Source: Bacteroidota bacterium
GTDB taxonomy: Bacteria > Bacteroidota > Bacteroidia > Bacteroidales > JAGNHN01
Assembly: GCA_022710185.1 (NCBI GenBank)
Contig: JAKLHK010000002.1
Location: 1 to 64,000 of the forward strand
Direction of reading: 5' to 3'
Length of the DNA stretch: 64,000 nt
Under the pieces are notes generated by a model. The model was not told the origin of the DNA, ran no database searches, and saw only the letters and a program-made list of their open reading frames with translations. The number at the start of each line of letters is the position of its first letter. Within the stretch, counting starts at the first letter, position 1. The position numbers and the translations under genes were made by a program. Below, one piece after another: positions 13,730-53,644 of the stretch.

Positions 13730-13764
13730 ATTGCTCAGCGCTCAGTGCTCATTGATATTGAACC
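13730..13764. repeat. Degenerate 7-base tandem array (H1)
   Basis: Five successive 7-base units starting at 13730, 13737, 13744, 13751 and 13758. The first three share a gctc core (attgctc, then agcgctc). It lies directly downstream of the pepD hairpin. Confidence 0.6.
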
Positions 13765-13788
13765 CTGAGTATAGAGCCATGCGAAATG

Positions 13789-13818
13789 AAAAAGTTTTTG
13801 CGTTCGCAAAAACTTTTT
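13789..13818. promoter_or_regulatory. 14-bp inverted repeat overlapping the rpmH -33 element
   Basis: aaaaagtttttgcg (13789-13802) and its exact reverse complement (13805-13818) flank a 2-base centre. The -33 TTG of the rpmH promoter lies in the left arm and the right arm ends two bases before the -7 box. It could be an operator or a pepD-side terminator; its placement favours an operator. Confidence 0.5.
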
Positions 13819-13827
13819 ATACCTTTG
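13798..13827 (+). promoter_or_regulatory. rpmH promoter, canonical Bacteroidota -33/-7
   Basis: TTG (13798-13800), a 19-base spacer, then TACCTTTG (13820-13827). Both elements and the spacing match the major-sigma-factor promoter described for Bacteroides and Flavobacterium. The predicted start of transcription near 13834 leaves a leader of about 15 bases before the rpmH ATG. Confidence 0.8.
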
Positions 13828-13848
13828 CCGCTCGCAAACTGAAACGCT

Positions 13849-14010
13849 ATGACAAAGAGGACCTTTCAGCCTTCGAGAAGAAAACGCAGGAACAAGCACG
13901 GTTTCAGGTCGCGTATGGCTACGGCCAACGGACGCAAGGTGTTGGCTGCACGCAGGGCCAAGGGCCGCAAGAAGCTGACCGTTTCAGACGAAACCCAGGA
14001 CAAGCGTTAA
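13849..14010 (+). CDS. rpmH: 50S ribosomal protein bL34
   Basis: A 53-residue, very basic protein beginning [18 protein letters not shown] and continuing [18 protein letters not shown], the unmistakable bL34 signature (KRTxQPSxxKRxxxHGFRxRMxTxxGRxVLxxRRxKGRKxL). It binds 23S rRNA in the large subunit. The C-terminus carries an extra acidic tail (about [10 protein letters not shown]), common in Bacteroidota. It has its own canonical promoter and a strong intrinsic terminator, so it is a single-gene unit here, not the rpmH-rnpA operon seen in many bacteria; dnaA and rnpA are not in the window. Confidence 0.97.
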
Positions 14011-14034
14011 GCACGAAACCATAAGATCGTGAGG

Positions 14035-14068
14035 AAGGGCCTCTCCATTGGAGCAGGCCCTTTTTATT
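14035..14068 (+). terminator. rpmH intrinsic terminator
   Basis: Stem aagggcct / aggccctt with an inner ctcc-att-ggag stem, followed by ttttt at 14061-14065. GC-rich stem plus T run, 25 bases after the rpmH stop, is a classic Rho-independent terminator. Confidence 0.88.
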
Positions 14069-14092
14069 GTTGGGTCTGCCTTTGGTAGACAT

Positions 14093-14150
<58 letters not shown>

Positions 14151-14280
14151 GAATTGAGATGTTGTCCGAATGCGGTATGTGGGGGATATTCATTGCGCTC
14201 TTCTCGCCTTCTGTGCGCTCATTGCGGTTAAATATTTAACGTCCAAAGGTTTACCTGCTTTTAAAATATTAATTTGTGAT

Positions 14281-14302
14281 AATCTGTGTTATCTGTGGTG
14301 AA
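14281..14302. repeat. Dispersed aatctgtgt element, first copy
   Basis: 22 bases matching 32784-32805 at 21 positions, in the same orientation. It lies in the spacer between rpmH and the DUF4834-like gene. Two copies 18 kb apart in spacers suggest a genome-wide family. Confidence 0.6.
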
Positions 14303-14349
14303 TAAAAAAACTGCGAGATGCCTTTGACAACACAAGTACTCAAACCATC

Positions 14350-14405
14350 AGGGACCAGGGACCAAGTACCAAAGAACATTTAGCATTTAACATACAACAT
14401 ATTAA
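14350..14405. repeat. Degenerate 7-base tandem array (H3)
   Basis: Eight consecutive 7-base units from 14350: two identical agggacc units, then units that drift stepwise (aagtacc, later atttaac). Each unit differs from its neighbour by one to a few bases, so the array grades from one word into another. Confidence 0.6.
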
Positions 14406-14634
14406 CCTAACATTTTCATATATGTATACGTAGTATGTATAAAATTCCGGCTTTATTAGGCGCGATTTGCGGCATTTTTAAATACTTTTCAGGACATCGT
14501 GCCAAAAAAGGGGCTGATTGCGCCAGAAAGCCCGAAATTTGGTCGGCGAAAAACTTGGTCCGCCAATGTGCTCCCAATTTTAACAATGCTTCCCATTTTT
14601 AGCCGTTTCTCATTATAATACTCATTTCCATAAT

Positions 14635-14880
14635 ATGTTAAAGCTCCTATTCTGGCTTTTAATTATCTATTTTATCTATCGCCTCCTCAACGGATGGATT
14701 GTCCCCACGGCTACTCGTTCCTATATCCGGAAACAGGAGGCCAGATATAAACCATCCTCCCCGGCCGGGAGCCGGGTGATCTTAGAGGAAGGAGAGCGCG
14801 AGCTGATTATCCCACCCCGGCCCAGGCGCGACAAGAACCCGGCGGACCACCTGGGGGAAGAGGCGGAGTATGAAAACTGA
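14635..14880 (+). CDS. Small membrane protein, DUF4834-like
   Basis: 81 residues. One hydrophobic N-terminal helix (LKLLFWLLIIYFIYRLL, residues 2-18) is followed by a charged, proline-rich tail rich in Arg, Lys and Glu that probably faces the cytoplasm. This matches the DUF4834 type of small Bacteroidota proteins (one N-terminal transmembrane helix with YRL, then a polar tail). Function unknown. Start: ATG at 14635, with no clear Shine-Dalgarno or -7 box. It stands alone between repeat-filled spacers, upstream of wecB by about 150 bases. Being short and unsupported by an operon, it is a moderately confident gene. Confidence 0.65.
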   Translation: MLKLLFWLLIIYFIYRLLNGWIVPTATRSYIRKQEARYKPSSPAGSRVILEEGERELIIPPRPRRDKNPADHLGEEAEYEN

Positions 14881-14912
14881 GTTTGGAGTTTGAGCAACAG
14901 TGTGGAGGAAGG

Positions 14913-14940
14913 GAATATCGAACACCGAACAAGAAATGTT
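14913..14940. repeat. 7-base tandem array, gaatatc/gaacaag type (H4)
   Basis: Units gaatatc (14913), gaacacc (14920) and gaacaag (14927), then a drifted unit. The same words in the same order recur near 32636 and, in related form, at 45270. Confidence 0.65.
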
Positions 14941-14972
14941 AAAGGATTGAAGCGAGAAGCGGATATGTATCC

Positions 14973-15013
14973 ATCGCCCATCATAAATCAAAATCAACCA
15001 TCAACCATCACTA
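14973..15013. repeat. 7-base tandem array, atcaacc type (H5), abutting wecB
   Basis: Units start at 14973, 14980, 14987 (6 bases), 14993, 15000 and 15007. Two are identical atcaacc, the reverse complement of the ggttgat unit of the array at 36622. It ends 13 bases before the wecB ATG and runs into tatcttta (15012-15019), a near match to a -7 box. Confidence 0.65.
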
Positions 15014-15026
15014 TCTTTACCGCCCG

Positions 15027-16130
15027 ATGACTTCGCGAAGCCCAATACTCATCGTGGCCGGCACCCGCCCCAATTTCATCAAGGTGGCGCCCCTGCTCCA
15101 CGCACTCCGTCAACACGGCGGCCTGCCCTTCCGCCTGGTGCATTCGGGCCAGCACCACGACGAAAACCTTTTCGACATCTTCTTCCGGGAACTGCATATT
15201 CCCCCACCTGATGAGGTGCTGGAGCCATTCCAGGGCAGCACGATGGAACGCTTTGGCCGCATCATGGTGGAGATGGAACGCCTTATCCAGGGGATGTCGC
15301 CCCGACTGGTCTTTGTGGTAGGGGACGTGGACACCACCCTGGCTGCCGCCCTGGCCGCCGTTAAGTGCAAGGTGCCCCTGGCCCATCTGGAAGCCGGCCT
15401 CCGCAGCGGCGACCGGCGTATGCCTGAAGAGGTCAACCGCATCATGACCGATGCCGTGGCAGACCACCTGCTGTCAACGGGCACGCGGGCCACCAGCCAC
15501 CTGCTGGCCGAGGGCCAGCCCAGGGAGCGCATCGTTGAGGTGGGCAACATCATGATCGACACCCTGCACCGCATGCAGGGGGCTATTGACCGCTCCATCG
15601 TACTGAAACAGCTGGGCCTCCCCCCCCGGGGGTATGCCCTGCTGACCCTGCACCGCCCCGGCAATGTGGACGAGGTGGGTCCGCTTTCCCGCCTCATGGA
15701 AGCCACCGCTACGCTCAGCCGGCAATTGCCGGTATTGTTCCCTGTCCATCCGCGTACGCGAAAGATGCTGGAACACTTCGGGTTATGGGAACAGCTACAG
15801 CTGCTGCCCGGTTTGCGCCTGTGCGGGCCCCTGGGCTATCTCGACTTCGGGCGCCTGGTGCGCGATGCCCGCCTGGTGCTCACCGACAGCGGTGGGGTGC
15901 AGGAAGAGACTACCGTATATGGGATTCCCTGCATCACCCTGCGCGACACCACCGAAAGGCCAGAGACCGTGGAGCTGGGCACCAGCCGGCTGGCGGCCGA
16001 CGACACGCATCGTATACTGGAACTGGCATCTCAGGCCCTTGCAGGGGACTGGCCCCAGGGCAGCATTCCCCCGCTTTGGGACGGCCGCACTGCGGAGCGC
16101 GTGGTAGCGTGGATGGAACAGCTGGATTAA
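15027..16130 (+). CDS. wecB: UDP-N-acetylglucosamine 2-epimerase (non-hydrolysing)
   Basis: 367 residues, the normal WecB length. The enzyme interconverts UDP-GlcNAc and UDP-ManNAc in the cytoplasm, supplying ManNAc units for surface glycans. Visible family motifs are GTRPNFIKVAPLL (residues 12-24), TGQHHDE-type SGQHHDENLFD (about 40), GDVDTTLAAALAA (about 99), HLEAGLRSGDRRMPEEVNR (about 121), LTLHRPGNVD (about 205), DSGGVQEE (about 288) and TERPETVELG (about 312). The catalytic acids and the substrate-binding loop are intact. The start ATG at 15027 fits the family N-terminus. It lies upstream of YfhO and GT2 genes and near the nonulosonic acid operon, so a role in exopolysaccharide or glycoprotein glycan assembly is likely. 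Confidence 0.93.
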   Translation: MTSRSPILIVAGTRPNFIKVAPLLHALRQHGGLPFRLVHSGQHHDENLFDIFFRELHIPPPDEVLEPFQGSTMERFGRIMVEMERLIQGMSPRLVFVVGDVDTTLAAALAAVKCKVPLAHLEAGLRSGDRRMPEEVNRIMTDAVADHLLSTGTRATSHLLAEGQPRERIVEVGNIMIDTLHRMQGAIDRSIVLKQLGLPPRGYALLTLHRPGNVDEVGPLSRLMEATATLSRQLPVLFPVHPRTRKMLEHFGLWEQLQLLPGLRLCGPLGYLDFGRLVRDARLVLTDSGGVQEETTVYGIPCITLRDTTERPETVELGTSRLAADDTHRILELASQALAGDWPQGSIPPLWDGRTAERVVAWMEQLD

Positions 16131-16246
16131 GCCCTTACCTCCCTGCCGACCCAAGCGCTTACTGCTTCACAATAATTTCTAATTTTAGCCCTCGTAAGCC
16201 TGAAACCGGGCCCAGCGCCTTGTAGCCACCATACCAACCCCTACCT

Positions 16247-18829
16247 ATGAACGTCACGGACCTGCTGAAAAAAGTCCTCCCCCACCTGGTTGCCATCCTG
16301 GTGATGCTGATCGTATCCAGCCTTTACTTTTACCCCTCCATGGAGGGCAAGTCGCTGCAAGGGCATGATATGATGATGAACTACGGAAAGTGGAGAGAGA
16401 TCAATGACTACGACCATTTCAATGGAGAGCGCCCGCTGTGGAACGGAGCGATATTCAGTGGGATGCCGGAATTCCTGGCCACTCACTATGAGGGATCCTC
16501 AGTGATCGCCCAGCTGTTCGTGATCCCACAGAAACTGGGGCTCCCCCTGGAAGTGATGTCCTTGTTCTGGTACATGCTCGGGTTCTACATCCTTATGGTG
16601 GCTGCAGGAGCAAGTCCCTGGATCGCCGTGGCCACGGCGATCGGTTTCGGTTTGACTACCTATAACATCATCATCATCGGAGCAGGCCACTTCAAAAAGG
16701 TGCACACCCTCGCCCTCATCCCCCCTACCCTGGGAGGGATACTTCTCCTGCTCCGGGGCCGGTATATCGGGGGCTTTGTTCTGACCACGCTCTTCCTTTC
16801 CCTGCAGATCGTGATGGCCCATGTGCAGATGACCTATTATTATGGTATCGGGCTTATCCTGATCCTGGGGGTCGAAGCGATCTATGCTTTCCGCGAGCAT
16901 ACCTGGCCACGCCTGCTCAAGGCTGGCGGGTTGATGGTGCTGGCGGCCCTGCTGGCGACGGCCCCCAATTATGCCAAGCTTATCAATTTATACGACTACA
17001 ACGAACACACCATCAGGGGCGGGGGAAGTGTTACTGCCCAGGAGGAAGGGGTGACCACCCAGGGGCTGGATAAAGGCTATATCAATGCCTGGAGCAGCGG
17101 GGTGGATGAAGCTCTGATGATACTTATCCCCGACGTCAAGGGAGGGAAGTCCGGGGCGGTCAGCCAGAACCGGGAGTTGATGCGCAAGGCCCCGGCCGAG
17201 TACCGCAATACCCTGGGTGGCATGAACGAATACTGGGGCGACCAGCCCTTTTCGGGAGGTCCCAACTACATCGGTGCTGTCTTCGCCTTTCTTTTTGTAC
17301 TGGGCCTTTTCATCGTGAGGGACCGCATCCGGTACGGACTGCTGGCCGCCGTGGCGCTGCTCACCCTGTTGTCCATGGGCGGGCATTTCCCTGCGCTTAC
17401 CAACCTCTTCATCGATCATGTGCCCCTGTACAATAAATTTCGCGCCCCGGTGTCCATCCTGGCTATAGTGGCGATCTATCTTCCCCTGCTGGCAGCCCTT
17501 GCCCTGCATGAGCTCAGCACCCGCAAGGACCTCCTGGAGGCGAAGCGCAAACTCCCCGGGTTGGGTAAGCCTTATCCCGTATTGTACCTTGCTGCCTTTG
17601 GCTACCTCGCCTTCCTGCTCCTGATTCTGGTCCTCCCTTCCGCTTTCAACTCATTCTTCAGCAAGGCCGAAATGGAGCAGATCGGGCCCATGCTCAGCAA
17701 TCCCGAATCCGCCGGGCAGATGGCCCAGATCGTGGATGCCATCGAGCGCTTCAGGATCAGCGTCTTTCGTGGGGATATCGTCAGGACTTTGCTGTTCACC
17801 CTGCTCAGCCTGGTATTTATCTGGCTGGTCGTCAAACGCAAGATCAAAGCCCCTGTGTTCGTGGCGGCTATGGCTCTGCTGATCGTAGTGGACCTGTGGC
17901 CGGTAGGGCGGCGCTATGTCCCGTTGAAAGATTTCACCCGCAAGACGGCCACCAAGGAAGCCCATCAGTTGACCGCCAACGACCGGCAGATCTATCAGAT
18001 GGAGATGGCCTTCACCCCAGGGATAGGAGAACGGATGAAGGAGCTGGAAACCACCTTCCCGGCAGCGAATGCGGAGGAAAGCGACCGTTTGCTCACCTAT
18101 GCCGTGAATACCCGCTCCCATTACAGGGTATTCAACGTGACCCAGTCGCCCTTCAATGAAAACACCACCTCCAATGCCCATCGGTCCATCGGGGGCTACC
18201 ACGCCGCCAAGCTGCGCAGGTACCAGGATATGATAGAGCAGCACATAGGCAAGAGCAGTATGCCGGTGATCAATATGCTGAACACCAAATACTTCATCAC
18301 CAAGGAAGGCCTGCAGGTGAATCCCGGCGCCCTGGGTGCCGCCTGGTTTGTGGACAGTATAAAATACGTTGAGGGCCCTACGGAAGAGATCGGAGCCCTG
18401 AACGGACTGGACCCTACCCGTACCGCCGTGGCGTCAAGAGATATACAGGAAAAGGTGGGAGCGTTTGACACTACCGCCCCCGGGGATACGGTAGCCTACC
18501 TGGGTTCTGCCCCGGACGAACTGACCTACCGCAGCCGCAGCGGAGGCGAACGTTTACTGGTGTTCTCGGAGGTTTATTACCCAGACTGGAAGTTGTATGT
18601 GGACGAGCAGGAGGTGCCGGTCTTCCGTGTAAACTATATCCTGAGGGCCGCAGTGGTCCCCGCAGGGGAACATACGCTACGCATGAGCTTCGAACCCAAG
18701 CTCTACCACGATTCCAACCTGATCTCACAGTACAGCTTTTACCTGTTTGTGCTGGTGCTGCTCGGGCTGTTGGCCTGGGGAGTGGTCCGGGAGCTGAGGA
18801 AATCGCAACCCGACAGCAAGCAAGCCTGA
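16247..18829 (+). CDS. YfhO-family multi-pass membrane protein
   Basis: 860 residues. A large N-terminal membrane region (about 12 hydrophobic segments between residues 12 and 545, first one LVAILVMLIVSSLYFYPSM) is followed by a long extracytoplasmic domain (about 560-830) with the NTKYFITKEG and FSEVYYPDWKLYVD motifs typical of YfhO proteins, and a final C-terminal helix (YLFVLVLLGLLAWGVV). YfhO proteins resemble GT-C glycosyltransferases that use lipid-linked sugars, and some members modify teichoic or lipoteichoic acid; the substrate here is unknown. The gene ends 5 bases before a GT2 gene that may make the lipid-linked donor, so the two probably form an operon. Confidence 0.88.
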   Translation: MNVTDLLKKVLPHLVAILVMLIVSSLYFYPSMEGKSLQGHDMMMNYGKWREINDYDHFNGERPLWNGAIFSGMPEFLATHYEGSSVIAQLFVIPQKLGLPLEVMSLFWYMLGFYILMVAAGASPWIAVATAIGFGLTTYNIIIIGAGHFKKVHTLALIPPTLGGILLLLRGRYIGGFVLTTLFLSLQIVMAHVQMTYYYGIGLILILGVEAIYAFREHTWPRLLKAGGLMVLAALLATAPNYAKLINLYDYNEHTIRGGGSVTAQEEGVTTQGLDKGYINAWSSGVDEALMILIPDVKGGKSGAVSQNRELMRKAPAEYRNTLGGMNEYWGDQPFSGGPNYIGAVFAFLFVLGLFIVRDRIRYGLLAAVALLTLLSMGGHFPALTNLFIDHVPLYNKFRAPVSILAIVAIYLPLLAALALHELSTRKDLLEAKRKLPGLGKPYPVLYLAAFGYLAFLLLILVLPSAFNSFFSKAEMEQIGPMLSNPESAGQMAQIVDAIERFRISVFRGDIVRTLLFTLLSLVFIWLVVKRKIKAPVFVAAMALLIVVDLWPVGRRYVPLKDFTRKTATKEAHQLTANDRQIYQMEMAFTPGIGERMKELETTFPAANAEESDRLLTYAVNTRSHYRVFNVTQSPFNENTTSNAHRSIGGYHAAKLRRYQDMIEQHIGKSSMPVINMLNTKYFITKEGLQVNPGALGAAWFVDSIKYVEGPTEEIGALNGLDPTRTAVASRDIQEKVGAFDTTAPGDTVAYLGSAPDELTYRSRSGGERLLVFSEVYYPDWKLYVDEQEVPVFRVNYILRAAVVPAGEHTLRMSFEPKLYHDSNLISQYSFYLFVLVLLGLLAWGVVRELRKSQPDSKQA

Positions 18830-18834
18830 ACGCG

Positions 18835-19848
18835 ATGGAGTTTACGCTGATCATCCCCGTATTCAACCGCCTGGAAGAAGTCAGGGAGCTCCTGGCCTCC
18901 GCGGAAGCCATGGATCACCCCCGGACCACCTTCGAATTCCTCTTTGTGGACGATGGTTCCACGGACGGGCTGACGGATTTCCTGGACGATTACGAAAGCC
19001 CTTCCGGTTTACAGGTGAGGTATTACCGCCAGGCCAACCAGGGCCCCGGGGCGGCGCGCAACAACGGCATGGCCCAGGCCAGGGGGGATTATTACATCTT
19101 TCTGGATTCGGATATTCTTCTACCTCCGGAATACCTGAGCACCATGGCCGCTTGTTTGAAAGAAAGGCCCCTGGATGCTTTTGGTGGCCCCGATGCTGCC
19201 CATCCCTCCTTCAGCGATGTGCAGAAGGCCATCAATTACGCCATGACCTCGCCCTTCACTACCGGGGGTATACGGGGCCGCAAGAAACAGCTGGACGCCT
19301 TTCAGCCCCGCTCCTTCAATATGGGCATCGCCCGTAAGGTATACGAGACCGTAGGCGGATTTTCGACCATACACCCGGGCGAGGATCCCGACCTCAGTCT
19401 GAGGATCAAGAAGGCCGGCTTCAGTGTGGGCAATTATCCGGAGCTCTATGTTTACCATAAGCGCCGCATCGATTTCGGCAAGTTCCGCAAGCAGGTGCAG
19501 AAGTTTGGGATGGTACGCAATATCCTCTTCAAGTGGCATCCGGGGACGATGAAGGCGGTGTACTTTCTTCCGGCGGTCTTTGTGCTGGGCAGCGCCTTCC
19601 TGGTACTCCTGTCCCTTGCCTGGTCCGCCTGGTTCCTTCTCCCCCTTGGGCTGCTGGCCCTGGTGCTGTTCCTCCACGCCCTGGGGCAGACCCGCAGCCT
19701 GAAGATCGCCGCCCTGGCCGTGCTGGCGAGCTTTATCCAGCTCTTTGGTTATGGATGGGGCTTCCTGCGCACCTTTGTAGCCGTCATCCTGCTGAAGAAG
19801 GACGAGCGTAAGGCCTTTCCGAAGCTTTTCTTCGAAAAGAAAGCCTGA
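18835..19848 (+). CDS. Family 2 glycosyltransferase with C-terminal membrane anchor
   Basis: 337 residues. GT-A fold: FTLIIPVFNRLEEV (3-16), FLFVDDGSTDGL (nucleotide-binding Asp, about 40), GPGAARNNGMAQARGDYYIFLDSD (DxD-type motif, about 67-90), and a GEDPDLSLRI acceptor-site acid pair near 182. The last third has two or three hydrophobic segments (about 240-285 and 295-325), so the enzyme is membrane-bound and may use undecaprenyl or polyprenyl phosphate or a lipid-linked acceptor. It follows the YfhO gene by 5 bases. It ends 1 base before the convergent gene at 19850, leaving no room for a terminator between them. Confidence 0.88.
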   Translation: MEFTLIIPVFNRLEEVRELLASAEAMDHPRTTFEFLFVDDGSTDGLTDFLDDYESPSGLQVRYYRQANQGPGAARNNGMAQARGDYYIFLDSDILLPPEYLSTMAACLKERPLDAFGGPDAAHPSFSDVQKAINYAMTSPFTTGGIRGRKKQLDAFQPRSFNMGIARKVYETVGGFSTIHPGEDPDLSLRIKKAGFSVGNYPELYVYHKRRIDFGKFRKQVQKFGMVRNILFKWHPGTMKAVYFLPAVFVLGSAFLVLLSLAWSAWFLLPLGLLALVLFLHALGQTRSLKIAALAVLASFIQLFGYGWGFLRTFVAVILLKKDERKAFPKLFFEKKA

Positions 19849-19849
19849 C

Positions 19850-24314: not shown

Positions 24315-24337
24315 AACCGCTCATTGTTGATAATCTG

Positions 24338-24345
24338 CAAAACTA
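24338..24345 (-). promoter_or_regulatory. Internal -7 box upstream of the flippase gene
   Basis: TAGTTTTG on the minus strand is an exact TAnnTTTG match in the 78-base gap between pseI and the flippase gene, the only real gap in the operon's second half. No TTG is seen at the right spacing. It may give separate expression of the flippase and the two transferases. Confidence 0.4.
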
Positions 24346-24392
24346 AGGCTTTTGTCCTTCAGCAGGCCGCTAAGGCCGGGGATATGCCAGGC

Positions 24393-26890: not shown

Positions 26891-26900
26891 AGTGACGGTG

Positions 26901-32677: not shown

Positions 32678-32783
32678 AAACCTTGAAGGAACCGCAGCCT
32701 CCGAAGACCAGACTCTCCCGGTACTCATAACTCTTTCACCTTTAGGAACTTTAGCTCACTTAAGGCACTTACTCCTCTGTGAA

Positions 32784-32805
32784 AATCTGTGTAATCTGTG
32801 GTGAA
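32784..32805. repeat. Dispersed aatctgtgt element, second copy
   Basis: A 22-base element beginning aatctgtgt and ending ctgtggtgaa. It differs by one base from the element at 14281-14302. Internally it is a near-repeat of a 9-base unit (atctgtgxx). It sits just downstream of higA's 3' end. Confidence 0.6.
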
Positions 32806-33518: not shown

Positions 33519-33545
33519 CACGCAAAGACGCGAAGACGCAAAGAA
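33519..33545. repeat. Dispersed 27-base acgcaaag element, copy 1
   Basis: Made of three 8-base units (acgcaaag, acgcgaag, acgcaaag) plus flanking bases. All 27 bases are identical to 34747-34773. It lies in the spacer upstream of higB. Confidence 0.75.
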
Positions 33546-33557
33546 AGCGAGAAGCAA

Positions 33558-33585
33558 ACAGCGAACAGCGAACAGCGAACAGCGA
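33558..33585. repeat. 7-base tandem array acagcga (H7)
   Basis: Four perfect acagcga units at 33558, 33565, 33572 and 33579, directly following the acgcaaag element. Confidence 0.85.
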
Positions 33586-33612
33586 AAAGCAGCATCCAAT
33601 GACCCGGCACAC

Positions 33613-34746: not shown

Positions 34747-34773
34747 CACGCAAAGACGCGAAGACGCAAAGAA
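34747..34773. repeat. Dispersed 27-base acgcaaag element, copy 2
   Basis: Identical over 27 bases to 33519-33545 and in the same orientation, 1.2 kb away, between nadC and yihY. A decayed third copy (acgcaagg-gcgcaaag) is at 34691-34706. Confidence 0.75.
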
Positions 34774-36150: not shown

Positions 36151-36627
36151 ATGAAGCTGAAGTTGATGGTAGTGGGCCGAACAGAGGGCGGCTGGATCAG
36201 TGATGGCTGCGACCAATACGCCAGGCGCATCGTGCATTATCTGCCGTTTACGCTGGAGGTTGTCCCTGACATAAGAGGAGCCGGCGGGCTGGGCCCCGCC
36301 CAGTTGCGCCGTAAAGAAGCAGAGAAAGTCCTGGAACGCCTGGGTCCCGATGACCGGCTCATCCTTATGGATGAACGGGGTCGTACCTATCCCTCCCTGG
36401 AGTTTGCCTCCCTCCTCTCCAAGGCAGCACTGGAGGGCGTGCGCAGCATGGTCTTTCTCATCGCAGGCGCCTACGGGGCCGACGAAAGCCTTAAAGCCCG
36501 CGCCGACCAGGTGATGAGTCTCTCCCCCATGACCTTCCCCCACCAGTTGGTCAGGGTACTCTTCCTGGAACAGCTCTACCGGGCGTGTACGATCAACAAA
36601 GGGGAGAAGTATCATAATGAAGGTTGA
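36151..36627 (+). CDS. rlmH: 23S rRNA (pseudouridine(1915)-N(3))-methyltransferase
   Basis: 158 residues from the ATG at 36151 (MKLKLMVVGRT), which has ggagg five bases upstream, the clearest Shine-Dalgarno in the window; longer frames to 36040 would overlap the divergent DUF4783 gene. SPOUT-fold methyltransferase: YARRIVHYLPF, LILMDERGRTYPSLEFAS, VFLIAGAYGADESLKARAD (SAM-binding knot, about 103-122) and SLSPMTFPHQLVRVLFLEQLYRA (about 126-148). It methylates pseudouridine 1915 in helix 69. The last codons are overrun by a 7-base repeat array (H8), giving the unusual KYHNEG end. Confidence 0.93.
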   Translation: MKLKLMVVGRTEGGWISDGCDQYARRIVHYLPFTLEVVPDIRGAGGLGPAQLRRKEAEKVLERLGPDDRLILMDERGRTYPSLEFASLLSKAALEGVRSMVFLIAGAYGADESLKARADQVMSLSPMTFPHQLVRVLFLEQLYRACTINKGEKYHNEG

Positions 36628-36670
36628 AGGTTGATGGCTCATGGTTGATGGCTGATGGTTTATTGCTGAT
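36622..36670. repeat. 7-base tandem array ggttgat/ggctgat (H8) overlapping the rlmH stop
   Basis: Seven units at exact 7-base steps from 36622; two are identical ggttgat (36629, 36643), others include ggctgat (36650). The rlmH stop TGA (36625-36627) is inside the first unit. ggttgat is the reverse complement of atcaacc in array H5. Confidence 0.75.
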
Positions 36671-42899: not shown

Positions 42900-42905
42900 A
42901 GCGGG

Positions 42906-45095: not shown

Positions 45096-45134
45096 CCGCG
45101 CTGTTCACTGATTGGGATAAGGTTATGATACGAA

Positions 45135-45269
45135 ATAGGGAGAGGGGAGGTTACGGTAGAGGAGGGAGAGGAAGAGGAAGAGGAAGAGGAAGAGGGAGAG
45201 GAAGAGGAAGAGGGAGAGGGAGAGGAGGAGGAGGAAGAGTGAGAGTGATAGTGCGAGTGAGAGGAAGAA
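45135..45269. repeat. Purine-only 6-base tandem tract
   Basis: About 105 bases of almost pure A and G (roughly 45162-45240) built from ggaaga, gggaga and ggagga units in exact 6-base steps, then decayed gagagt and gatagt units to 45269. Heptad array H9 follows without a gap. Mirror-symmetric polypurine of this length can form triplex DNA. It sits in the divergent gap between the exporter and AMP nucleosidase genes. Confidence 0.8.
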
Positions 45270-45311
45270 GAATATTGAATTTCGAACATCGATTGATGAA
45301 GGATGAAGTGG
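45270..45311. repeat. 7-base tandem array, gaatatt type (H9)
   Basis: Units at 45270 (gaatatt), 45277 (gaatttc), 45284 (gaacatc), 45291, 45298 and 45305, all beginning with ga. The words are those of arrays H4 and H6. Confidence 0.65.
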
Positions 45312-45346
45312 AGCCATGGCCTTGAGCGCTGAGCCTTGCGAAGTCT

Positions 45347-45354
45347 TATCTTTG
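45347..45354 (+). promoter_or_regulatory. -7 box of the AMP nucleosidase gene
   Basis: TATCTTTG, exact TAnnTTTG. It predicts transcription from about 45361 and so excludes the in-frame ATG at 45336 and supports the ATG at 45375. The nearest TTG (45322-45324) is spaced 22 bases away. Confidence 0.55.
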
Positions 45355-45374
45355 AACACGTCTATCCAGGCCTT

Positions 45375-46145: not shown

Positions 46146-46161
46146 CCTCTACTGCAGACGC

Positions 46162-47376: not shown

Positions 47377-49183
47377 TGCCCGCGTTGTTACGGTACAGCG
47401 CCTCAATGAGCCCTGCGTAGCGGTGCATGATCTCGTTTCTGCGGAGCTTGAGGGTAGGCGAAAGTTCTCCCGTTTCCACGGTCCAGTCGTCGCTGACCAG
47501 GGCAAAGCGCTTCACCTGCTCGGTATGGTCGAAATGGGCGTTGATGGAAGCCACTTCCAGACGGAAGCGGTTGACCACGGCAGGATCCATCAGCATTTCG
47601 GCATCGGTACGCCAGGGAATGCCCTTGTCGGCGCACCAGGTACTCAGATAGCTCCGGCTGGGCACGATGAGGGCTGCGGCATAGTTGCGGTTCTCGCCGA
47701 TGACGATGACATTTTCGATGAACTCGGACTCCCGGAAGCGTGTCTCAAGGACCTGGGGGGCGATATACTTCCCGCCGGAGGTCTTGAAAATCTCTTTCTT
47801 ACGGTCGGTGATGCGCAGGTAACGCCCGTCCACCATCGTTCCCACGTCGCCGGTGTGCAGCCAACCCTCTTCATCCAGCACTTTGGCAGTTCGTTCGGGG
47901 GCATTGAGGTACCCCGCCATGACGTTGGGTCCACGGACCAGGATCTCGCCATCGGAGGCGATCTTCACTTCCACACCCCGGATCAGAGGACCCACGGTAC
48001 CGAACCGGACCCCATCGGGGGCAAAGGTGCCCACCGATACTACCGGGCTGGTCTCGGTAAGCCCATAGCCTTCCATGACGCGAATCCCTGCGGCCCAATA
48101 GACCCGTGCCAGGTGTTCGTTGAGGCTGGCACCCCCCGAAACAATCACACGCAAACGACCCCCCATAGCCTTTCGCCAGTGCCGCAGGACCAGCCAGCGG
48201 GCCAGGAAAAGTCTGAAGGCATAGCCCTTGCCGTTGGCCCTGTTGAGCTCGTAGCGGTGGGCAAGCTGCAGGGAATGCACGAAGAGGCGGCGCGAGTTGC
48301 CCCGCAGATATTTGCCCCGCATAACGAAACGCTCATAGGTCTTTTCCAGCACCCGGGGCACCGCGCAGAGGATGTCCGGCCTCACCTCGCGGAAGGAATC
48401 GCGCAGGAACTCCAGGCTGCTGACATAGTACACCGTGATGCCCATATTCTGATACATATAGTTCAGAATACGTTCGTACACATGACAGAGGGGGAGGAAG
48501 GACAAAGCCCGTTTCAATCGCCTGCGGTAGTCCGGTGCGTCTTCAAGGATAGCAGACACGGCCAGAAAATTGCTAACGATGTTGGCATGCGTCAACATCA
48601 CTCCTTTGGGGTTTCCGGTGGTGCCTGAGGTATAGATGACGGTGGCCAGGTCGCCGGGCTGCACCTCACCGGCCCGTTGGCGAAGGCTTTCATCGAGGGT
48701 GGTATCCTCCGAGAAGAGTTCCCCCCAGGTACCAGGGCCTTCCCCCTTTACGGTATACACCTTCAAGGCAGCCATACCTTGTGCGGAAAGCGAGCGTATG
48801 CTTTCGCGCAGTTCGGTGTCGGCGCAAAACACATATTTTACCCCGGCATCCCGCAGGATATACGCGATGTTGTGCTGGCTGATGGTGGGGTAGACCGGGA
48901 CCTGCACTGCTCCCAGCCGCAGGAGCGCCATATCGAGGAAGTTCCACTCCGGGCCATTGCGGAGTATGGTGGCCACGCGTTCACCCTGACCTATGCCCAG
49001 GGCCATCAGCCCCCGGCTCAGGCGCAACACTTGCTCACGGTACCCGTCTCCGCCCAGGGTCTGCCAGTTTCCTTCGACCTTGAAGCCAAAGACCGGAGCA
49101 TCCCCTCGCTTTCCCCGGCGCCCGCAGTGCTCAAGGATATCGAAGACACGGGTGATGGCTCTATGCTCCGGCCCAGGGACCAT
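47366..49183 (-). CDS. AMP-dependent synthetase/ligase (long-chain acyl-CoA synthetase-like), paralogue 3
   Basis: 605 residues. ANL-family adenylating enzyme: VIYTSGTTGNPKGVMLTH (P-loop, about 186-203), LSFLPLCHVYERI, VIVSGGASLNEHL, MEGYGLTETSPVVSV (about 372-386), GWLHTGDVGTMVDGRYLRITDRKKEIFKTSGGKYIAPQ (about 440-478). Activates a fatty acid to acyl-AMP and then acyl-CoA. It begins one base after the stop of the previous paralogue and is the most divergent of the three (GGDGYREQV N-terminus, TDRKKEIFKTSGGKYIAP core). Its 3' end overlaps holA. Confidence 0.9.
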   Translation of the reverse strand: MVPGPEHRAITRVFDILEHCGRRGKRGDAPVFGFKVEGNWQTLGGDGYREQVLRLSRGLMALGIGQGERVATILRNGPEWNFLDMALLRLGAVQVPVYPTISQHNIAYILRDAGVKYVFCADTELRESIRSLSAQGMAALKVYTVKGEGPGTWGELFSEDTTLDESLRQRAGEVQPGDLATVIYTSGTTGNPKGVMLTHANIVSNFLAVSAILEDAPDYRRRLKRALSFLPLCHVYERILNYMYQNMGITVYYVSSLEFLRDSFREVRPDILCAVPRVLEKTYERFVMRGKYLRGNSRRLFVHSLQLAHRYELNRANGKGYAFRLFLARWLVLRHWRKAMGGRLRVIVSGGASLNEHLARVYWAAGIRVMEGYGLTETSPVVSVGTFAPDGVRFGTVGPLIRGVEVKIASDGEILVRGPNVMAGYLNAPERTAKVLDEEGWLHTGDVGTMVDGRYLRITDRKKEIFKTSGGKYIAPQVLETRFRESEFIENVIVIGENRNYAAALIVPSRSYLSTWCADKGIPWRTDAEMLMDPAVVNRFRLEVASINAHFDHTEQVKRFALVSDDWTVETGELSPTLKLRRNEIMHRYAGLIEALYRNNAGISA

Positions 49184-49184
49184 A

Positions 49185-50972
49185 TTATCCTGAAATATTG
49201 AAAATACGAAGGATGAGGTCGGTGTACTTTTGCTGGATGAACTCCCTGCGGTTCTTGAGCGAGGCCGTCAATTCGCCGGTCTCTATAGACCATTCGTGGT
49301 CGATGAGCTCGAACTTCCGGATCTTCTCGGTGTCCCCGAAGAACTCGTTGTATTTGTCCACCTCCTTCTGGAAGCGTTTCCTGACGCGGGCCTCCTTCAC
49401 CATTTCAGCATCGGTGGTATAGGGGATCTCCTTGATCTGGCACCAGCTGCGCAAATGGTAGAAACTGGGAACCACGAGGGCGGCGGCAAACTTCTGGTTC
49501 TCCCCGACGACCAGGATATTATCGATGAAGGGGGATTCCTTGAAGCGGTTCTCGATGAGGGCCGGGCTGATGTATTTTCCGAAGGAGGTCTTGAATATCT
49601 CCTTCTTGCGTCCGGTGATGCGCAGGTAGCGTCCCTGCTCCATGACCCCGATATCCCCGGTATGGAACCAGCCTTCTGTATCGATGGCCTCGGCGGTGAG
49701 CTCTGGTTCGCGATAATAGCCCAGCATCACGCTGGGGCCTTTGCAAAGGATCTCCCCGTCGTCGGCAATGCGGACCTCTACATTGTCCAGCACCGGGCCC
49801 ACGGTGCCAAAGGCCCATTCCCCCGGACGGAAATTATTGACGGCGATCACGGGCGAGGTCTCCGTCAGCCCGTATCCTTCGAGCACAGGGATCCCGGCAG
49901 CGGAAAATATGCGGGCCAGCCTGGGCTGGAGGGCGGCGCCCCCGGACACGATTACCTTGAAGTTGCCGCCCAGGGCGGCCTGCCACTTGGTAAATACCAG
50001 CTTGCGGGCGATCTTCAGCCTGAACTCATACCACCACCCGTTTGCGCCATTCAGTTCGTAGCGCAGTCCCAGGCTTACGGCCCAGAAGAAGAAGAATTTC
50101 TTGATCCCTTTCAGGCGGCGCCCGGTGCCGATGATCTTGTCGTAGAACTTTTCTAGCAGGCGGGGAACCGTGGTGAGTATGTCGGGCCTGATCTCCTTCA
50201 GGTTATCCCCGATGGTGCCTATATTCTCAGCATAGTAGATGGAAATTCCCTTGTACTGGAGAAGATAGGTAAGCATGCGCTCATAGATATGGCAAAGGGG
50301 CAGGTAGCTGAGGGCCCGTCCTTCGTGTCCAACGGGGGGGACATGTTCCACCCCGAAAACATTACTCAGGATGTTGCGGTGGGAGAGCATCACGCCCTTG
50401 GGGTTACCCGTGGTTCCTGAGGTATAGATGAGGGTGGCCAGATCGTCACCCTGGATGGCGGCCATGATGGCGGCCAGCTGCTCGGGGTTTCGTCCGCCAA
50501 CGCCTTTTTCTCTGAGTTCGCTGATATGGGGCACCCCTTCGAGCCGGTCGAAGGCATAGAGCCCGCTGACCAGGGGCAGGTCAGGAAGGATATGGGCGAT
50601 CTTGCGGTGAAGGTCACGGGATGAGACCACCACGAGCTTCACTTCGGCATGGCCGAGGATATAACGGTAATCCGCCTCGCTGATGGTTGGGTAAACGGGC
50701 ACATGGACAGCCCCGGCCATCATGATGGCCATATCCAGGAAGTTCCATTCCGGACGGTTGTTGCTGATGGAGGCCACCTTGTCGCCAGGGGCTATTCCCG
50801 CCGCAATCAGCCCATACGCCAGGGCTTCGGCCTCTTCAATATAGTGATCGATGGACCAGGCCTTCCATTTTCCGTCCTCCTTACCGGAGAGCAGGTCGGG
50901 TTTGGGCGGGTAGGCTTCCCTGATAAAGGGCAGCAGGTCGAAAAGGCGTTCGATCTGTTTCATGGGCTCCAT
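49185..50972 (-). CDS. Long-chain acyl-CoA synthetase-like, paralogue 2
   Basis: 595 residues (or 592 from the internal ATG three codons in). Domains as in the flanking paralogues: GIAPGDKVASISNNRPEWNFLD (about 60-81), TLIYTSGTTGNPKGVMLSH (about 183), LSYLPLCHIYERM, VIVSGGAALQPRL, LEGYGLTETSPVIAV, GWFHTGDIGVMEQGRYLRITGRKKEIFKTSFGKYISP. It is closely similar to paralogue 1 upstream. 12 bases separate it from that gene. The set may provide acyl-CoA for beta-oxidation or lipid remodelling with different chain-length preferences; no other fad gene is in the window. Confidence 0.9.
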   Translation of the reverse strand: MEPMKQIERLFDLLPFIREAYPPKPDLLSGKEDGKWKAWSIDHYIEEAEALAYGLIAAGIAPGDKVASISNNRPEWNFLDMAIMMAGAVHVPVYPTISEADYRYILGHAEVKLVVVSSRDLHRKIAHILPDLPLVSGLYAFDRLEGVPHISELREKGVGGRNPEQLAAIMAAIQGDDLATLIYTSGTTGNPKGVMLSHRNILSNVFGVEHVPPVGHEGRALSYLPLCHIYERMLTYLLQYKGISIYYAENIGTIGDNLKEIRPDILTTVPRLLEKFYDKIIGTGRRLKGIKKFFFFWAVSLGLRYELNGANGWWYEFRLKIARKLVFTKWQAALGGNFKVIVSGGAALQPRLARIFSAAGIPVLEGYGLTETSPVIAVNNFRPGEWAFGTVGPVLDNVEVRIADDGEILCKGPSVMLGYYREPELTAEAIDTEGWFHTGDIGVMEQGRYLRITGRKKEIFKTSFGKYISPALIENRFKESPFIDNILVVGENQKFAAALVVPSFYHLRSWCQIKEIPYTTDAEMVKEARVRKRFQKEVDKYNEFFGDTEKIRKFELIDHEWSIETGELTASLKNRREFIQQKYTDLILRIFNISG

Positions 50973-50984
50973 GGTTAATTAACC

Positions 50985-52763
50985 CTATTTGGCACCGTTG
51001 CCGAAGATGCGGTCGATGACCTCCTGGTATCGCTCTGTAACTACATTGCGCTTGAGTTTCAGGGTTGGCGTCAACTCCCCACCGTTCACGCTCCATTCGC
51101 GGGGGATGAGCTCGATCTTGCGTACCTGTTCGGCGCTCCCCAGCTCGTGGTTGTAGCGGTCCACCTCCTTGATGAACCGCCTTCTGATTCTTTCCATCTT
51201 AACCATTTCCTCATCGGTGGTATAGGGTATCTCTTTAATCCTGCACCAGGACTTCAGGTGGGCGAAGTCGGGAACGATGAGGGCTGCAGCAAAGCGCTGG
51301 TTCTCCCCCACCACCATGGCATTGTCGATGAAGGAAGAAGACTTGAGCTTATTCTCAATGAGTTCGGGGGCAATATATTTCCCGAGGGAAGTTTTGAAGA
51401 TTTCCTTTTTCCTTCCGGTGATCCTGAGCTGCCCTTCGGGCTCAATCATGCCCACATCACCGGTATGGAACCAGCCGTCGGAGTCGATGACCTGAGCGGT
51501 GAGTTCTGGTTCCTTGTAATAACCCTTCATGATATTGGGCCCCCGGGCCAGTATTTCGCCGTCACCGGCGATGCGCACCTCAACCCCACGCAGCGGGGGA
51601 CCCACGGTCCCGGCCCTGAGACCGTTGGGATCGGTACTCGTGACGGCCACCACCGGGGAGGTTTCGGTAAGCCCGTAGCCCTCGTATACTGGCAGTCCGG
51701 CAGCCCGGTATACCTTAACCAGGCGGGGCTGCAAGGCTGCGCTGCCCGATACGATGATCTTAAAATTGCCTCCCAGGGCGGCCCTCCACTTGCTCAGCAC
51801 CAATTTATCGGCCAGACGATGGCGGATACTGAAGTGCCAGGGGTTATGGCCGGTCTCGTTGTAATGCTCCGCGATGCTCACAGCCCAGAAGAAGATCATG
51901 CGCTTGACGCCCTTGAGTTTGCGCCCCTGGGTAAGGATGCGGTCGAACACCTTTTCCAGGAATCGCGGCACGGCGCTCATCATGTCGGGCTTTACCTCCC
52001 TTACATTATCCCCCACGGTGGCCAGGTTCTCGGCGTAGTAAACTGAGATGCCCAGATACTGATAGAGGTATACCAGCATGCGTTCATAAACATGACAAAG
52101 GGGCAGGAAGCTCAGGGCCCGGCCTTCTTCACCGAAAGTGGGGATATAGCTCACTGCAATGAAGTTGGAAATGAGGTTGGCGTGGGTGAGCATGACCCCC
52201 TTGGGATTGCCTGTGGTGCCGCTGGTATAGACGATGGTGGCCACATCATCGGTCTTCACAGCATCCATGCGCGCCTGCATCTCTTCACGATACGGGAGGG
52301 TGGCCGCACGCCCCACCATGTCCGAAAAGCGCCCGAGATCCTCCACCGCATCGATGCTGATGACCTGCTTCACACTCTCAATCCTGGGGAGCACCCCTAC
52401 GATCTTGCGATAGATCTCGTTCCCGCCCACGAACACCACGGGAGTCCCGGCATGTCGCAGGATATAGTCGTAGTCGGCTTCGGTAATCGTCGGATAGATG
52501 GGAACATGCACAGCCCCGGCCATCAGTATGCCCATATCCAGGAAATTCCATTCTGGGCGGTTGTTCATGATGGTGGCCACGTTGTCGCCCGGCCGAATGC
52601 CCATATCAATAAGGGCAAAGGCCACAGCCTCGGCCTGCCGGATGTAGGCCTGAATGTCGTACTTCTTCCATTCGCCATCAGACTTCCCGGCCAGGACGTC
52701 GTCCTTGGGCCTGAAGCTGGAAGCATACCGCGGCAAGAGGTCAAAAAGACGTTTGACTTCCAT
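50985..52763 (-). CDS. Long-chain acyl-CoA synthetase-like, paralogue 1
   Basis: 592 residues, first gene of the three-gene run. ANL landmarks: MGIRPGDNVATIMNNRPEWNFLD (about 56), TIVYTSGTTGNPKGVMLTHAN (about 178), LSFLPLCHVYERM, IIVSGSAALQPRL, YEGYGLTETSPVVAV, GWFHTGDVGMIEPEGQLRITGRKKEIFKTSLGKYIAPE. The C-terminal subdomain lysine region is present (GELTPTLKLKRNVVTERY). No -7 box of the standard type is visible within 100 bases upstream. Confidence 0.9.
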   Translation of the reverse strand: MEVKRLFDLLPRYASSFRPKDDVLAGKSDGEWKKYDIQAYIRQAEAVAFALIDMGIRPGDNVATIMNNRPEWNFLDMGILMAGAVHVPIYPTITEADYDYILRHAGTPVVFVGGNEIYRKIVGVLPRIESVKQVISIDAVEDLGRFSDMVGRAATLPYREEMQARMDAVKTDDVATIVYTSGTTGNPKGVMLTHANLISNFIAVSYIPTFGEEGRALSFLPLCHVYERMLVYLYQYLGISVYYAENLATVGDNVREVKPDMMSAVPRFLEKVFDRILTQGRKLKGVKRMIFFWAVSIAEHYNETGHNPWHFSIRHRLADKLVLSKWRAALGGNFKIIVSGSAALQPRLVKVYRAAGLPVYEGYGLTETSPVVAVTSTDPNGLRAGTVGPPLRGVEVRIAGDGEILARGPNIMKGYYKEPELTAQVIDSDGWFHTGDVGMIEPEGQLRITGRKKEIFKTSLGKYIAPELIENKLKSSSFIDNAMVVGENQRFAAALIVPDFAHLKSWCRIKEIPYTTDEEMVKMERIRRRFIKEVDRYNHELGSAEQVRKIELIPREWSVNGGELTPTLKLKRNVVTERYQEVIDRIFGNGAK

Positions 52764-52855
52764 AGTTAAAGATGTATTGTTCCCACCCCCTCAGAAGGAA
52801 GGGCTAATATACAAAAACCACGAACGGAAATACGCCCCTTAAGGGCAGTGATAAA

Positions 52856-53608
52856 CTACCGCTTATGCCACACCAACGCCCCGGCCTGGGCCAGCGGCAT
52901 GATCAGCAAGTCGTTGATGTTGACATGCGGGGGCAGGGTGGTAACATAGTGACAGACCTCGGCGATGTCTTCTCCCTTCAGCGGTTCATAGCCCTTGTAT
53001 ACGCCTGCCGCCATCTCCATATCCCATTTGAAACGTACCGCTGAGAACTCCGTTTCGGCGGCGCCGGGGGCAATCTGGGTGACTTTGATGCCATGACGGA
53101 GAAGATCCATGCGCATCCCTTTGGTCAGGGCATCCACGGCATGCTTGGTGGCAGAATACACTGCGCCATTAGGGTACACTTCCCGGCCGGCTACTGAGCC
53201 GATATTGATGATGTGACCGCAACCCCGGGCCACCATACCCGGGCTCAGGGCCCGGGTAACATAGAGCAGTCCTTTGATGTTGGTGTCTATCATGGTTTCC
53301 CAGTCGTCCACCTCCCCATCCTGCACAGGCTGCAGCCCCAGGGCCAGGCCGGCATTGTTCACCAGGACGTCGATATCCATCCATTCCTGGGGCAGGGTTT
53401 CCAGGGCCTGGGCGGTCTCCTGGCGGTCGCGCACATCGAAGACCAGCACCAGGCTTTCCGTCTGGTGCTCCAGGGCCAATTCCTCGGCAAGCTCTTCAAG
53501 GCGATCGGCCCTGCGGCCAGTGAGGATAAGCCGCCATCCCTCCCTGGCGAAACGTCGGGCGCAGGCCCCGCCAATGCCACTACTGGCGCCGGTAATGAGA
53601 ATTGTCAT
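52856..53608 (-). CDS. Short-chain dehydrogenase/reductase, YdfG-like
   Basis: 250 residues. Classical SDR: ILITGASSGIGGACARRFA (NADP loop TGxxxGIG, 3-21), LTGRRADRLEEL with the Arg typical of NADP preference, DVLVNNAGLALG (about 84-95), IINIGSVAGREVYPNGAVYSATKHAV with catalytic Ser, Tyr and Lys (about 132-157), and QIAPGAAETEFS (about 176). The pattern PGAAETEFSxVRF matches the YdfG type, which oxidises L-allo-threonine or serine and reduces 3-hydroxy acids. It lies 55 bases downstream of purL on the same strand, with a 7-base array in the gap. Confidence 0.9.
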   Translation of the reverse strand: MTILITGASSGIGGACARRFAREGWRLILTGRRADRLEELAEELALEHQTESLVLVFDVRDRQETAQALETLPQEWMDIDVLVNNAGLALGLQPVQDGEVDDWETMIDTNIKGLLYVTRALSPGMVARGCGHIINIGSVAGREVYPNGAVYSATKHAVDALTKGMRMDLLRHGIKVTQIAPGAAETEFSAVRFKWDMEMAAGVYKGYEPLKGEDIAEVCHYVTTLPPHVNINDLLIMPLAQAGALVWHKR

Positions 53609-53609
53609 G

Positions 53610-53644
53610 TTCTATTTTCTATGTTCTGTGTTCTGTGTTCGATA
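53610..53644. repeat. 7-base tandem array, ttctgtg type (H10)
   Basis: Units at 53610 (ttctatt), 53617 (ttctatg), 53624 and 53631 (both ttctgtg), 53638 (ttcgata). It lies between purL and the SDR gene, one base upstream of the SDR ATG. Confidence 0.75.

What the first reader, a model, noticed from the sequence alone, without database searches (positions are those of the whole stretch)
13730..53644. Strict 7-base period in at least ten unrelated spacer arrays
Reading the spacers shows short tandem arrays whose units step by exactly 7 bases at 13730, 14094, 14350, 14913, 14973, 32599, 33558, 36622, 45270 and 53610. Only some are perfect (ggctagt, acagcga); most drift gradually so that the consensus word changes along the array while the period stays 7. 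Heptanucleotide short tandem repeats (STRRs) are documented in cyanobacteria; I do not know of an established description in Bacteroidota. Inference: a common mechanism (slippage or templated copying with a 7-base register) seeds spacers in this genome.
Basis: partly seen in the sequence, partly recalled or inferred. Interest (0 to 1): 0.75.

Follow-up and report, generated by a model that had tools for sequence, protein, structure and literature searches.

The report
Seven-base repeat arrays between genes
The gaps between genes in this bacterium are crowded with short DNA words repeated in steps of exactly seven letters; this kind of repeat is already known in other bacteria, but here it is exceptionally dense, is mostly missing from the matching gaps of its nearest sampled relative, and follows a directional rule that also shows up in other phyla.

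Summary
Around all ten sites lag 7 is the best lag among 4-12; eight reach the floor of 1000 local shuffles, two are weak (14913, 45270; p 0.013, 0.027). In 57.9 kb of spacer from 464 kb of this genome, 75 period-7 segments occur against 0.2 in shuffles and 2 in 405 kb of coding DNA; lags 5, 6, 8 give 1, 8, 4. Words drift in register: unit identity falls from 0.91 (neighbours) to 0.73 (seven apart). Array density is about six times that of a congener; 27 syntenic spacers carry 6 arrays here, 0 there.

Heptameric intergenic repeats are a published kind (PMC4692102, PMC4679880), Bacteroidetes included. More general here: inverted array pairs put the G/T-rich arm first in 39 of 40; other inverted repeats show no such bias (90:106). 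Rehm 2015 reported this polarity for one word.

Best explanation: dispersal of heptad DNA plus slippage turnover in 7-nt steps, trimmed by selection at start and stop codons. No telomerase-like reverse transcriptase was found; a transposon origin is unproven. Why seven, and why the arm order, remain open.

The parts
13722..13754 (+). Drifting heptad array (CATTGCT/CAGCGCT/CAGTGCT), spacer between an M20 peptidase gene and the L34 gene
   Evidence: lag-7 score 11, p 0.001; flanking genes
14074..14090 (.). Degenerate copy (1 mismatch) of the dispersed hairpin GTCTGCC-NNN-GGCAGAC that accompanies many TAGTGGC arrays
   Evidence: 44 places in the genome at <=1 mismatch, backwards control 2
14093..14129 (+). 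TAGTGGC array, begins after a terminator-like hairpin behind the L34 gene; degenerate AGTGG units continue to about 14150
   Evidence: lag-7 score 27.5; TRF 14093-14150, 8.4 copies; the corresponding spacer of G001 is 246 bp and has no lag-7 segment, 624 bp here
14349..14372 (+). CAGGGAC/CAAGTAC heptads
   Evidence: score 12, p 0.001
14377..14401 (+). CATTTAG/CATTTAA/CATACAA heptads
   Evidence: score 10.5
14913..14931 (+). GAATATC GAACACC GAACA phrase, weak
   Evidence: score 7, p 0.013
14993..15010 (+). ATCAACC array before the UDP-GlcNAc 2-epimerase gene
   Evidence: score 11, p 0.001; Pfam PF02350
32651..32680 (+).
   Evidence: score 20.5
33545..33590 (+). CAGCGAA array with drift
   Evidence: score 26.5, p 0.001
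36618..36658 (+). TGATGGT/TGATGGC array; overlaps the 3' end of the SPOUT methyltransferase ORF, whose stop codon lies in the array
   Evidence: score 19, p 0.001; ORF ends 36627; Pfam PF02590
45295..45308 (+).
   Evidence: score 7, p 0.027; period 6
53607..53640 (-). AGAACAT/AGAACAC array (sense of the short-chain dehydrogenase gene), abuts its start; G001 has no spacer here
   Evidence: score 19.5, p 0.001; syntenic pair 55 against 0 bp

Best explanation
The arrays are a lineage-specific bloom of heptameric intergenic tandem repeats, the same kind as described in cyanobacteria, Xanthomonas, Beggiatoaceae and some Bacteroidetes. Shown: period 7 dominates, arrays lie outside genes, units drift from neighbour to neighbour, a few words recur at many loci, syntenic spacers of a congener lack them, and arrays next to genes are oriented. 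Inferred: heptad/hairpin DNA reaches new spacers by copying of existing segments; once there, units are gained, lost and miscopied in 7-nt steps by replication slippage; translation then filters what survives, so that an array running over a gene end must supply a stop codon (a heptad carrying one stops all three frames every 21 bp) and an array touching a start codon must be free of start codons. The step of seven may reflect how much primer-template duplex the polymerase holds, as proposed earlier (reported in PMC4692102); this was not tested here.
For: Lag-7 excess in spacers, not genes; exact two-copy repeats of 7 bp 144 against 6 in one shuffle, of 8 bp 4 against 0, of 6 bp 63 against 22, of 5 bp 83 against 70. 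Unit identity falls with separation in 15 own arrays (0.907 to 0.728) and 54 others (0.882 to 0.737), neighbours above 200 permutations of unit order: turnover, not decay of a once-perfect array. Paralogous copies with near-identical right flanks have arrays of 30, 37, 30 and 38 bp. Syntenic spacers: 6 arrays in 4 of 27 here, 0 in G001; sizes 55/0, 286/99, 74/5, 401/42 bp. A DinB-family polymerase gene is 385 aa here against 403 aa and ends inside a TAGTGGC array. Start-side words (within 50 bp) carry a start codon in sense in 7 of 49, in antisense in 30 of 49; arrays within 10 bp of a start are A/C-rich in 19 of 20; arrays overlapping a stop have a sense stop in 30 of 36, antisense 17, though ORF calling favours that. 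Density 0.4/kb in divergent, 1.6 in tandem, 1.8 in convergent spacers.
Against: Generic slippage does not explain why this genome has about 6 times the density of its congener: MutS and DinB-type polymerases occur in all 14 genomes checked, array-rich and -poor. The border filter does not explain the 39:1 arm order of inverted pairs nor the agreement of interior arrays in other Bacteroidota (19 of 24); interior arrays here (15 of 33) and in the GTDB loci (15 of 22, p 0.13) do not show it clearly. Arrays that begin after the stop have no stop-codon bias (27 sense, 25 antisense of 48), and in G000 are not significantly G/T-rich (8 to 6). Differences between neighbouring units are transversion-rich here (40 transitions, 55 transversions), unlike elsewhere (377, 223), which is unexplained. 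No copying route was identified and no close strain was available.
Confidence: 0.6

Rival explanations
1. Telomere-like end addition: at DNA breaks in or near spacers, G/T-rich heptads are added to both 3' ends (by an RNA-templated enzyme or by self-primed polymerase extension), and the ends are later joined, leaving G/T-rich arms pointing inward from both flanks, as in a head-to-head telomere fusion.
For: Inverted pairs put the G/T-rich arm first in 39 of 40 cases; inverted partners of TAGTGGC lie downstream in 24 of 78 and upstream in 0 of 78; other inverted repeats show no polarity; an array replaced the last codons of a gene; bacterial DRT10 enzymes make tandem-repeat cDNA, 9-nt units in the best studied case (PMC12632851, abstract and passages).
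Against: The only RT found in G000 is a group II intron RT/maturase; the DRT10 (UG17) profile hits only that protein here, hits weakly in G229 and G285, and not at all in the array-bearing G349, G135, G205, G326. Many different words per genome argue against one template. In the printed examples the arms are separated by a core of tens of bases, not directly fused.
Confidence: 0.08
2. Mobile element: the arrays are cargo or remains of a small transposable element, for instance a REP/SDR-like hairpin mobilised in trans.
For: A hairpin GTCTGCC-NNN-GGCAGAC occurs at 44 places and sits among TAGTGGC heptads in 10 of 20 printed loci, 11 with the 1-mismatch window copy; composite segments beyond the perfect heptads recur at several loci; insertions relative to G001.
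Against: About half of the printed TAGTGGC loci have no hairpin; G000 has a single Y1 transposase match of 30.9 bits while the array-poor G001 has four; no match of window 14060-14160 in 50,697 phage or 72,556 plasmid records; TAGTGGC x3 in viral contigs 8 stretches against 7 for the backwards control. Target-site duplications were not tested; only one transposase family was searched.
Confidence: 0.15
3. Selected function: the arrays are regulatory or termination elements at gene ends (RNA stem-loops, Rho loading, all-frame stops).
For: Lag-7 match near gene 3' ends 0.366 within 15 bp against 0.285-0.291 beyond 180 bp; inverted arms could form stems; consistent orientation near genes.
Against: Absent in the syntenic spacers of a congener; words change freely; an array has overwritten a gene end. 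RNA data were not available.
Confidence: 0.15

Closest known systems
Heptameric GGGAATC / GGGGA(C/T)T intergenic repeats of Xanthomonas and Nostoc (Rehm 2015, PMC4692102; abstract and sections 3, 13, 16 seen)
   Same: Unit 7, mostly intergenic, dispersed, variable copy number, scarce between divergent genes, may overlap stop codons, G-rich strand reading away from the nearer gene whatever the gene's orientation
   Different: One G-quadruplex-type word per genome there, preferably four units; here several words, drifting in register, mostly not G-tract words
TAACTGA heptamer repeats of Beggiatoaceae, cyanobacteria and five Bacteroidetes (MacGregor 2015, PMC4679880; abstract and sections 11, 12 seen)
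   Same: Unit 7, mostly intergenic, species-specific; close relatives have shorter spacers without them; 7-nt indels between Cyanothece strains; other heptamer words mixed in some Bacteroidetes spacers
   Different: In Beggiatoaceae a single word just upstream of starts, read as a regulator site; here several words, the commonest often at gene 3' ends
Four- and five-unit heptanucleotide elements of Geobacter metallireducens (PMC2700814; passages only)
   Same: Tandem heptamers dispersed through one genome
   Different: Fixed unit number; predicted regulatory elements, also inside genes
Small dispersed repeats of cyanobacteria (Elhai 2008; not held; recalled; cited in PMC3116915, passages seen)
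   Same: Short hairpin elements; their association with heptamer arrays is recalled, not checked
   Different: No sequence comparison was made; mobility untested here

Membership tests
Heptameric intergenic simple sequence repeats (STRR kind) | Tandem unit of 7 bp, in excess over other periods | tested here: met
   75 segments against 0.2 shuffled; lags 5, 6, 8, 9: 1, 8, 4, 6
Heptameric intergenic simple sequence repeats (STRR kind) | Intergenic and dispersed over the genome | tested here: met
   2 segments in 405 kb coding; TAGTGGC x2 169 hits, on at least 10 contigs in the part listed
Heptameric intergenic simple sequence repeats (STRR kind) | Copy number varies between close strains in steps of 7 | tested here: inconclusive
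   No close strain; paralogous copies 30, 37, 30, 38 bp
REP/REPIN with RAYT transposase | Palindromic element with a RAYT-type Y1 transposase in the genome | tested here: inconclusive
   44 hairpins, but one Y1_Tnp match of 30.9 bits (cut-off 23); subtype not examined
DRT10 / telomerase-like reverse transcriptase product | UG17-type RT in the genome | tested here: not met
   Only hit is the group II intron RT; genome 92% complete, so absence is not final
Phase-variation repeats | Copy-number change switches expression | not testable with these tools
   No strains, no expression data

The most novel reading that the evidence does not exclude
Heptad arrays record a bacterial process of strand-specific 3'-end extension: G/T-rich 7-nt repeats are written outward from DNA ends, like a telomere G-strand, and then joined head to head, which would explain both the fixed step of seven and the near-invariant G/T-first arm order across phyla.
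Probability: 0.07. Interest if true: 0.92.

Novelty: new variant of a known kind. Interest (0 to 1): 0.55.

Why it matters
An excess of heptamers in bacterial spacers has, according to Rehm 2015, been known since 2007, with a polymerase-footprint cause proposed; I found no test of that cause. This genome and its congener differ about six-fold in array density and share enough gene order that gain of arrays can be traced. The arm-order rule (39 of 40 pairs) is a sharp constraint on any mechanism; it separates plain slippage from strand-specific addition and can be tested in strain collections.

Tried and rejected
Telomerase-like RT: only a group II intron RT found. Loss of mismatch repair: MutS in 14 of 14 genomes; DinB-type polymerase likewise. 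Phage or plasmid origin: no BLAST match; viral scan of TAGTGGC x3 no better than its backwards control (8 and 7 stretches); AACATAG x3 gave 2 viral stretches, no control run. RNA family: no Rfam match in the window at gathering scores. A preference for 7-bp hairpin arms: stem lengths decline smoothly. Polarity by flank decay: TAGTGGC 0.363 upstream against 0.536 downstream, p 0.0008 (29 arrays), p 0.06 for the 14 without hairpin neighbours; ATCAACC 0.486 against 0.282, p 0.004 (10); TATCTGA and AACATAG not significant. Dropped before counts: bait arrays and the bait plus 150 bp; spacers under 40 bp; spacers at stretch ends in the position tests; spacers at stretch ends were kept. Three of 20 stretches asked for did not exist.
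Full report
What is there. The window is bases 1-64000 of a 222-kb contig of a 3.28-Mb, 53-contig genome. Lag 7 is the best lag around all ten sites named, eight of them at the floor of 1000 shuffles; at three the best segment lies 20 to 52 bp from the named base. In 464 kb (window plus 20 stretches) with 57,852 bp of spacer, base match at lag 7 is 0.292 against 0.255 in shuffles (z 19.9), with harmonics at 14, 21 and 28. Segments scoring at least 10 number 75 at lag 7, against 1, 8, 4 and 6 at lags 5, 6, 8 and 9, 0.2 in shuffles, and 2 in 405 kb of coding DNA. Counting only exact two-copy repeats in 85.8 kb of spacer, 7-mers number 144 against 6 in one shuffle, 6-mers 63 against 22, 8-mers 4 against 0.

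How the arrays look. They share a small vocabulary (TAGTGGC, AACATAG, ATCAACC, TATCTGA). Words change gradually: mean unit identity is 0.907 between neighbours and 0.728 seven units apart in 15 own arrays, 0.882 to 0.737 in 54 arrays of other genomes; permuted unit order gives 0.82 and 0.80 between neighbours. The simplest reading is that units are copied from their neighbours. A hairpin, GTCTGCC-NNN-GGCAGAC, is present at 44 places (backwards control 2), often in clusters of period 25 or 32, which differ by 7; in 10 of 20 printed TAGTGGC loci it lies among the heptads and is followed by AGTGGC and further TAGTGGC units; a copy with one mismatch is at window 14074-14090. Four paralogous copies in two neighbouring spacers have arrays of 30, 37, 30 and 38 bp before a nearly identical right flank.

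Where they sit. Lag-7 match is highest within 15 bp of gene 3' ends (0.366, against 0.298 at starts); arrays are about four times rarer in divergent spacers (8 in 19.8 kb) than in tandem (48 in 30.0 kb) or convergent ones (15 in 8.5 kb). Several arrays overlap the called stop codon; one holds the stop of the SPOUT methyltransferase ORF in the window (36618-36658). Between a DinB-family polymerase gene and a DNA polymerase III alpha gene (Pfam hits), the congener has a 5-bp gap and a 403-aa DinB; here the DinB is 385 aa, ends in the array, and the gap is 74 bp.

When they arose. The same-genus genome G001 (about 70% DNA identity over one gene; median protein identity 55% for 100 reciprocal best hits) has 11 lag-7 segments in 52.1 kb of spacer, this genome 106 in 85.8 kb; G001 has 0 to 2 at the other lags from 4 to 13, so it shares the preference at lower density. 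My first small sample of G001 (13.9 kb of spacer, 1 segment) understated this. Some own stretches were chosen for hairpins or a gene, but, taken before that, gives the same density. Of 43 adjacent syntenic gene pairs, 27 have a spacer of at least 40 bp in one genome; these hold 6 arrays here (in 4 spacers) and 0 in G001, and the four spacers are longer here (55/0, 286/99, 74/5, 401/42 bp). Spacers without arrays vary both ways. The spacer behind L34 is 624 bp here and 246 bp in G001; I judged the next small ORF to be the same gene by eye, and Pfam does not name it. TAGTGGC x2 has 169 hits here and none in 59 other genomes of the order (backwards control in 2 of 60). Loss in G001 rather than gain here is formally possible.

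Elsewhere. In 17 genomes of the phylum not chosen for arrays (54.2 kb of spacer), lag 7 gives 9 segments against 0.8 shuffled, other lags from 4 to 13 give 1 to 4; two genomes carry 7 of the 9. Loci fetched with ATCAACC x3 show drifting heptad arrays, several with other words. In 106 GTDB loci fetched with TAGTGGC x4, after masking 150 bp around the bait, lag 7 has 55 segments, lags 5, 6, 8 and 9 have 0, 13, 5 and 11; 27 of 106 loci contribute.

The directional rule. Among inverted pairs of arrays within 400 bp, found without gene calls, the first arm is the more G/T-rich in 4 of 4 pairs here, 6 of 6 in other Bacteroidota loci and 29 of 30 in the GTDB loci. The last set holds 24 loci, most with the bait word and at least seven from Brevundimonas or its family by their titles, so the pairs are not all independent. 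An inverted partner of a bait array lies downstream in 24 of 78 and upstream in 0 of 78. As control, the longest exact inverted repeat of spacers without heptads shows no such order (90 against 106); in spacers with heptads, where it need not be the heptad pair, it is 60 against 34, and 9 against 10 in the other Bacteroidota.

Relative to genes, arrays within 30 bp after a stop are G/T-rich in sense in 50 and A/C-rich in 9 cases, arrays within 30 bp before a start 5 and 23, and array-free spacers are near neutral. Because an ORF caller stops where an array supplies a stop, I repeated this with arrays that begin after the stop: 34 to 12 overall, but 8 to 6 in this genome, and 13 to 8 for words without a sense stop. 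On the start side the effect is confined to the last 10 bp (1 to 19) and absent at 11-50 bp (11 to 15). By spacer type, left-G/T right-A/C order holds in 34 of 38 arrays in convergent, 82 of 113 in tandem and 17 of 26 in divergent spacers; more than 50 bp from genes it holds in 15 of 33 here, 19 of 24 in other Bacteroidota and 15 of 22 in the GTDB loci. So near genes the rule is strong; away from genes in this genome only the few inverted pairs show it. Rehm 2015 states the same for GGGAATC: repeats lie nearer to the 5'-neighbouring ORF irrespective of ORF orientation, including overlap with stop codons (PMC4692102 section 13). The form over many words is what I add; searches listed no paper that I recognised as stating it, but most papers were seen only as listings.

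What it is. By kind these are heptameric intergenic simple sequence repeats. Rehm 2015 credits a 2007 survey (by recall Mrazek; not held) with finding heptamers over-represented in many bacteria and with proposing a polymerase-footprint cause; Mrazek and Huang 2014 (PMC4060949, passages) find units of 4 to 11 bp normally represented overall. Best account: dispersal by copying, then slippage turnover in 7-nt steps, then a translation filter at coding borders. Shown: the period, drift, difference from the congener, placement, orientation near genes. Inferred: slippage as the motor, the polymerase origin of seven, the copying route.

What was tested against it. Reverse transcriptase of the DRT10 type: not found. 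Mismatch repair loss: no. Phage or plasmid match: none. Limits: home-made gene caller, a fifth of the genome read, no conspecific strains, no RNA data.

Noticed in passing
   Followed up: no
window 33520-33544 and 34748-34772: The same 8-bp-period ACGCAAAG consensus occurs in two spacers 1.2 kb apart; period-9 AATCTGTG-type phrases at 14270-14297 and 32776-32800. Word families with periods 8 to 10 share these spacers.
   Followed up: no
window 1-11186: An open frame of about 11 kb was called on the minus strand at the window's edge; parts of this stretch match places elsewhere in the genome at about 70%.
   Followed up: no
L025:12855-13140, L016:2087-2218, L231:419-762: CCCTTCGACA...GCTCAGGGACC phrase beside AACATAG arrays; I recall similar phrases in unrelated bacteria (recalled, not checked).
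   Followed up: no
L028:1-1713 and 2842-3264: Four copies of a repeat of roughly 250 bp with a conserved hairpin-rich part and differing heptad arrays.
   Followed up: partly
L025:12855-17417: The operon of the genome's only DinB-type match and a DnaE-type polymerase itself carries heptad arrays, before the first gene and between the two.
   Followed up: partly
G000 C1 end, C3 start (L222, L011): Two contigs end in or near TAGTGGC arrays, so the assembly probably breaks at them and counts may be low.
   Followed up: no
L161:3540-5150: A contig titled Clostridiales has inverted heptad arrays with telomere-like words (TTAGGTT with CCTAAAA, TTAGGGG with CCCCTAA).
   Followed up: no
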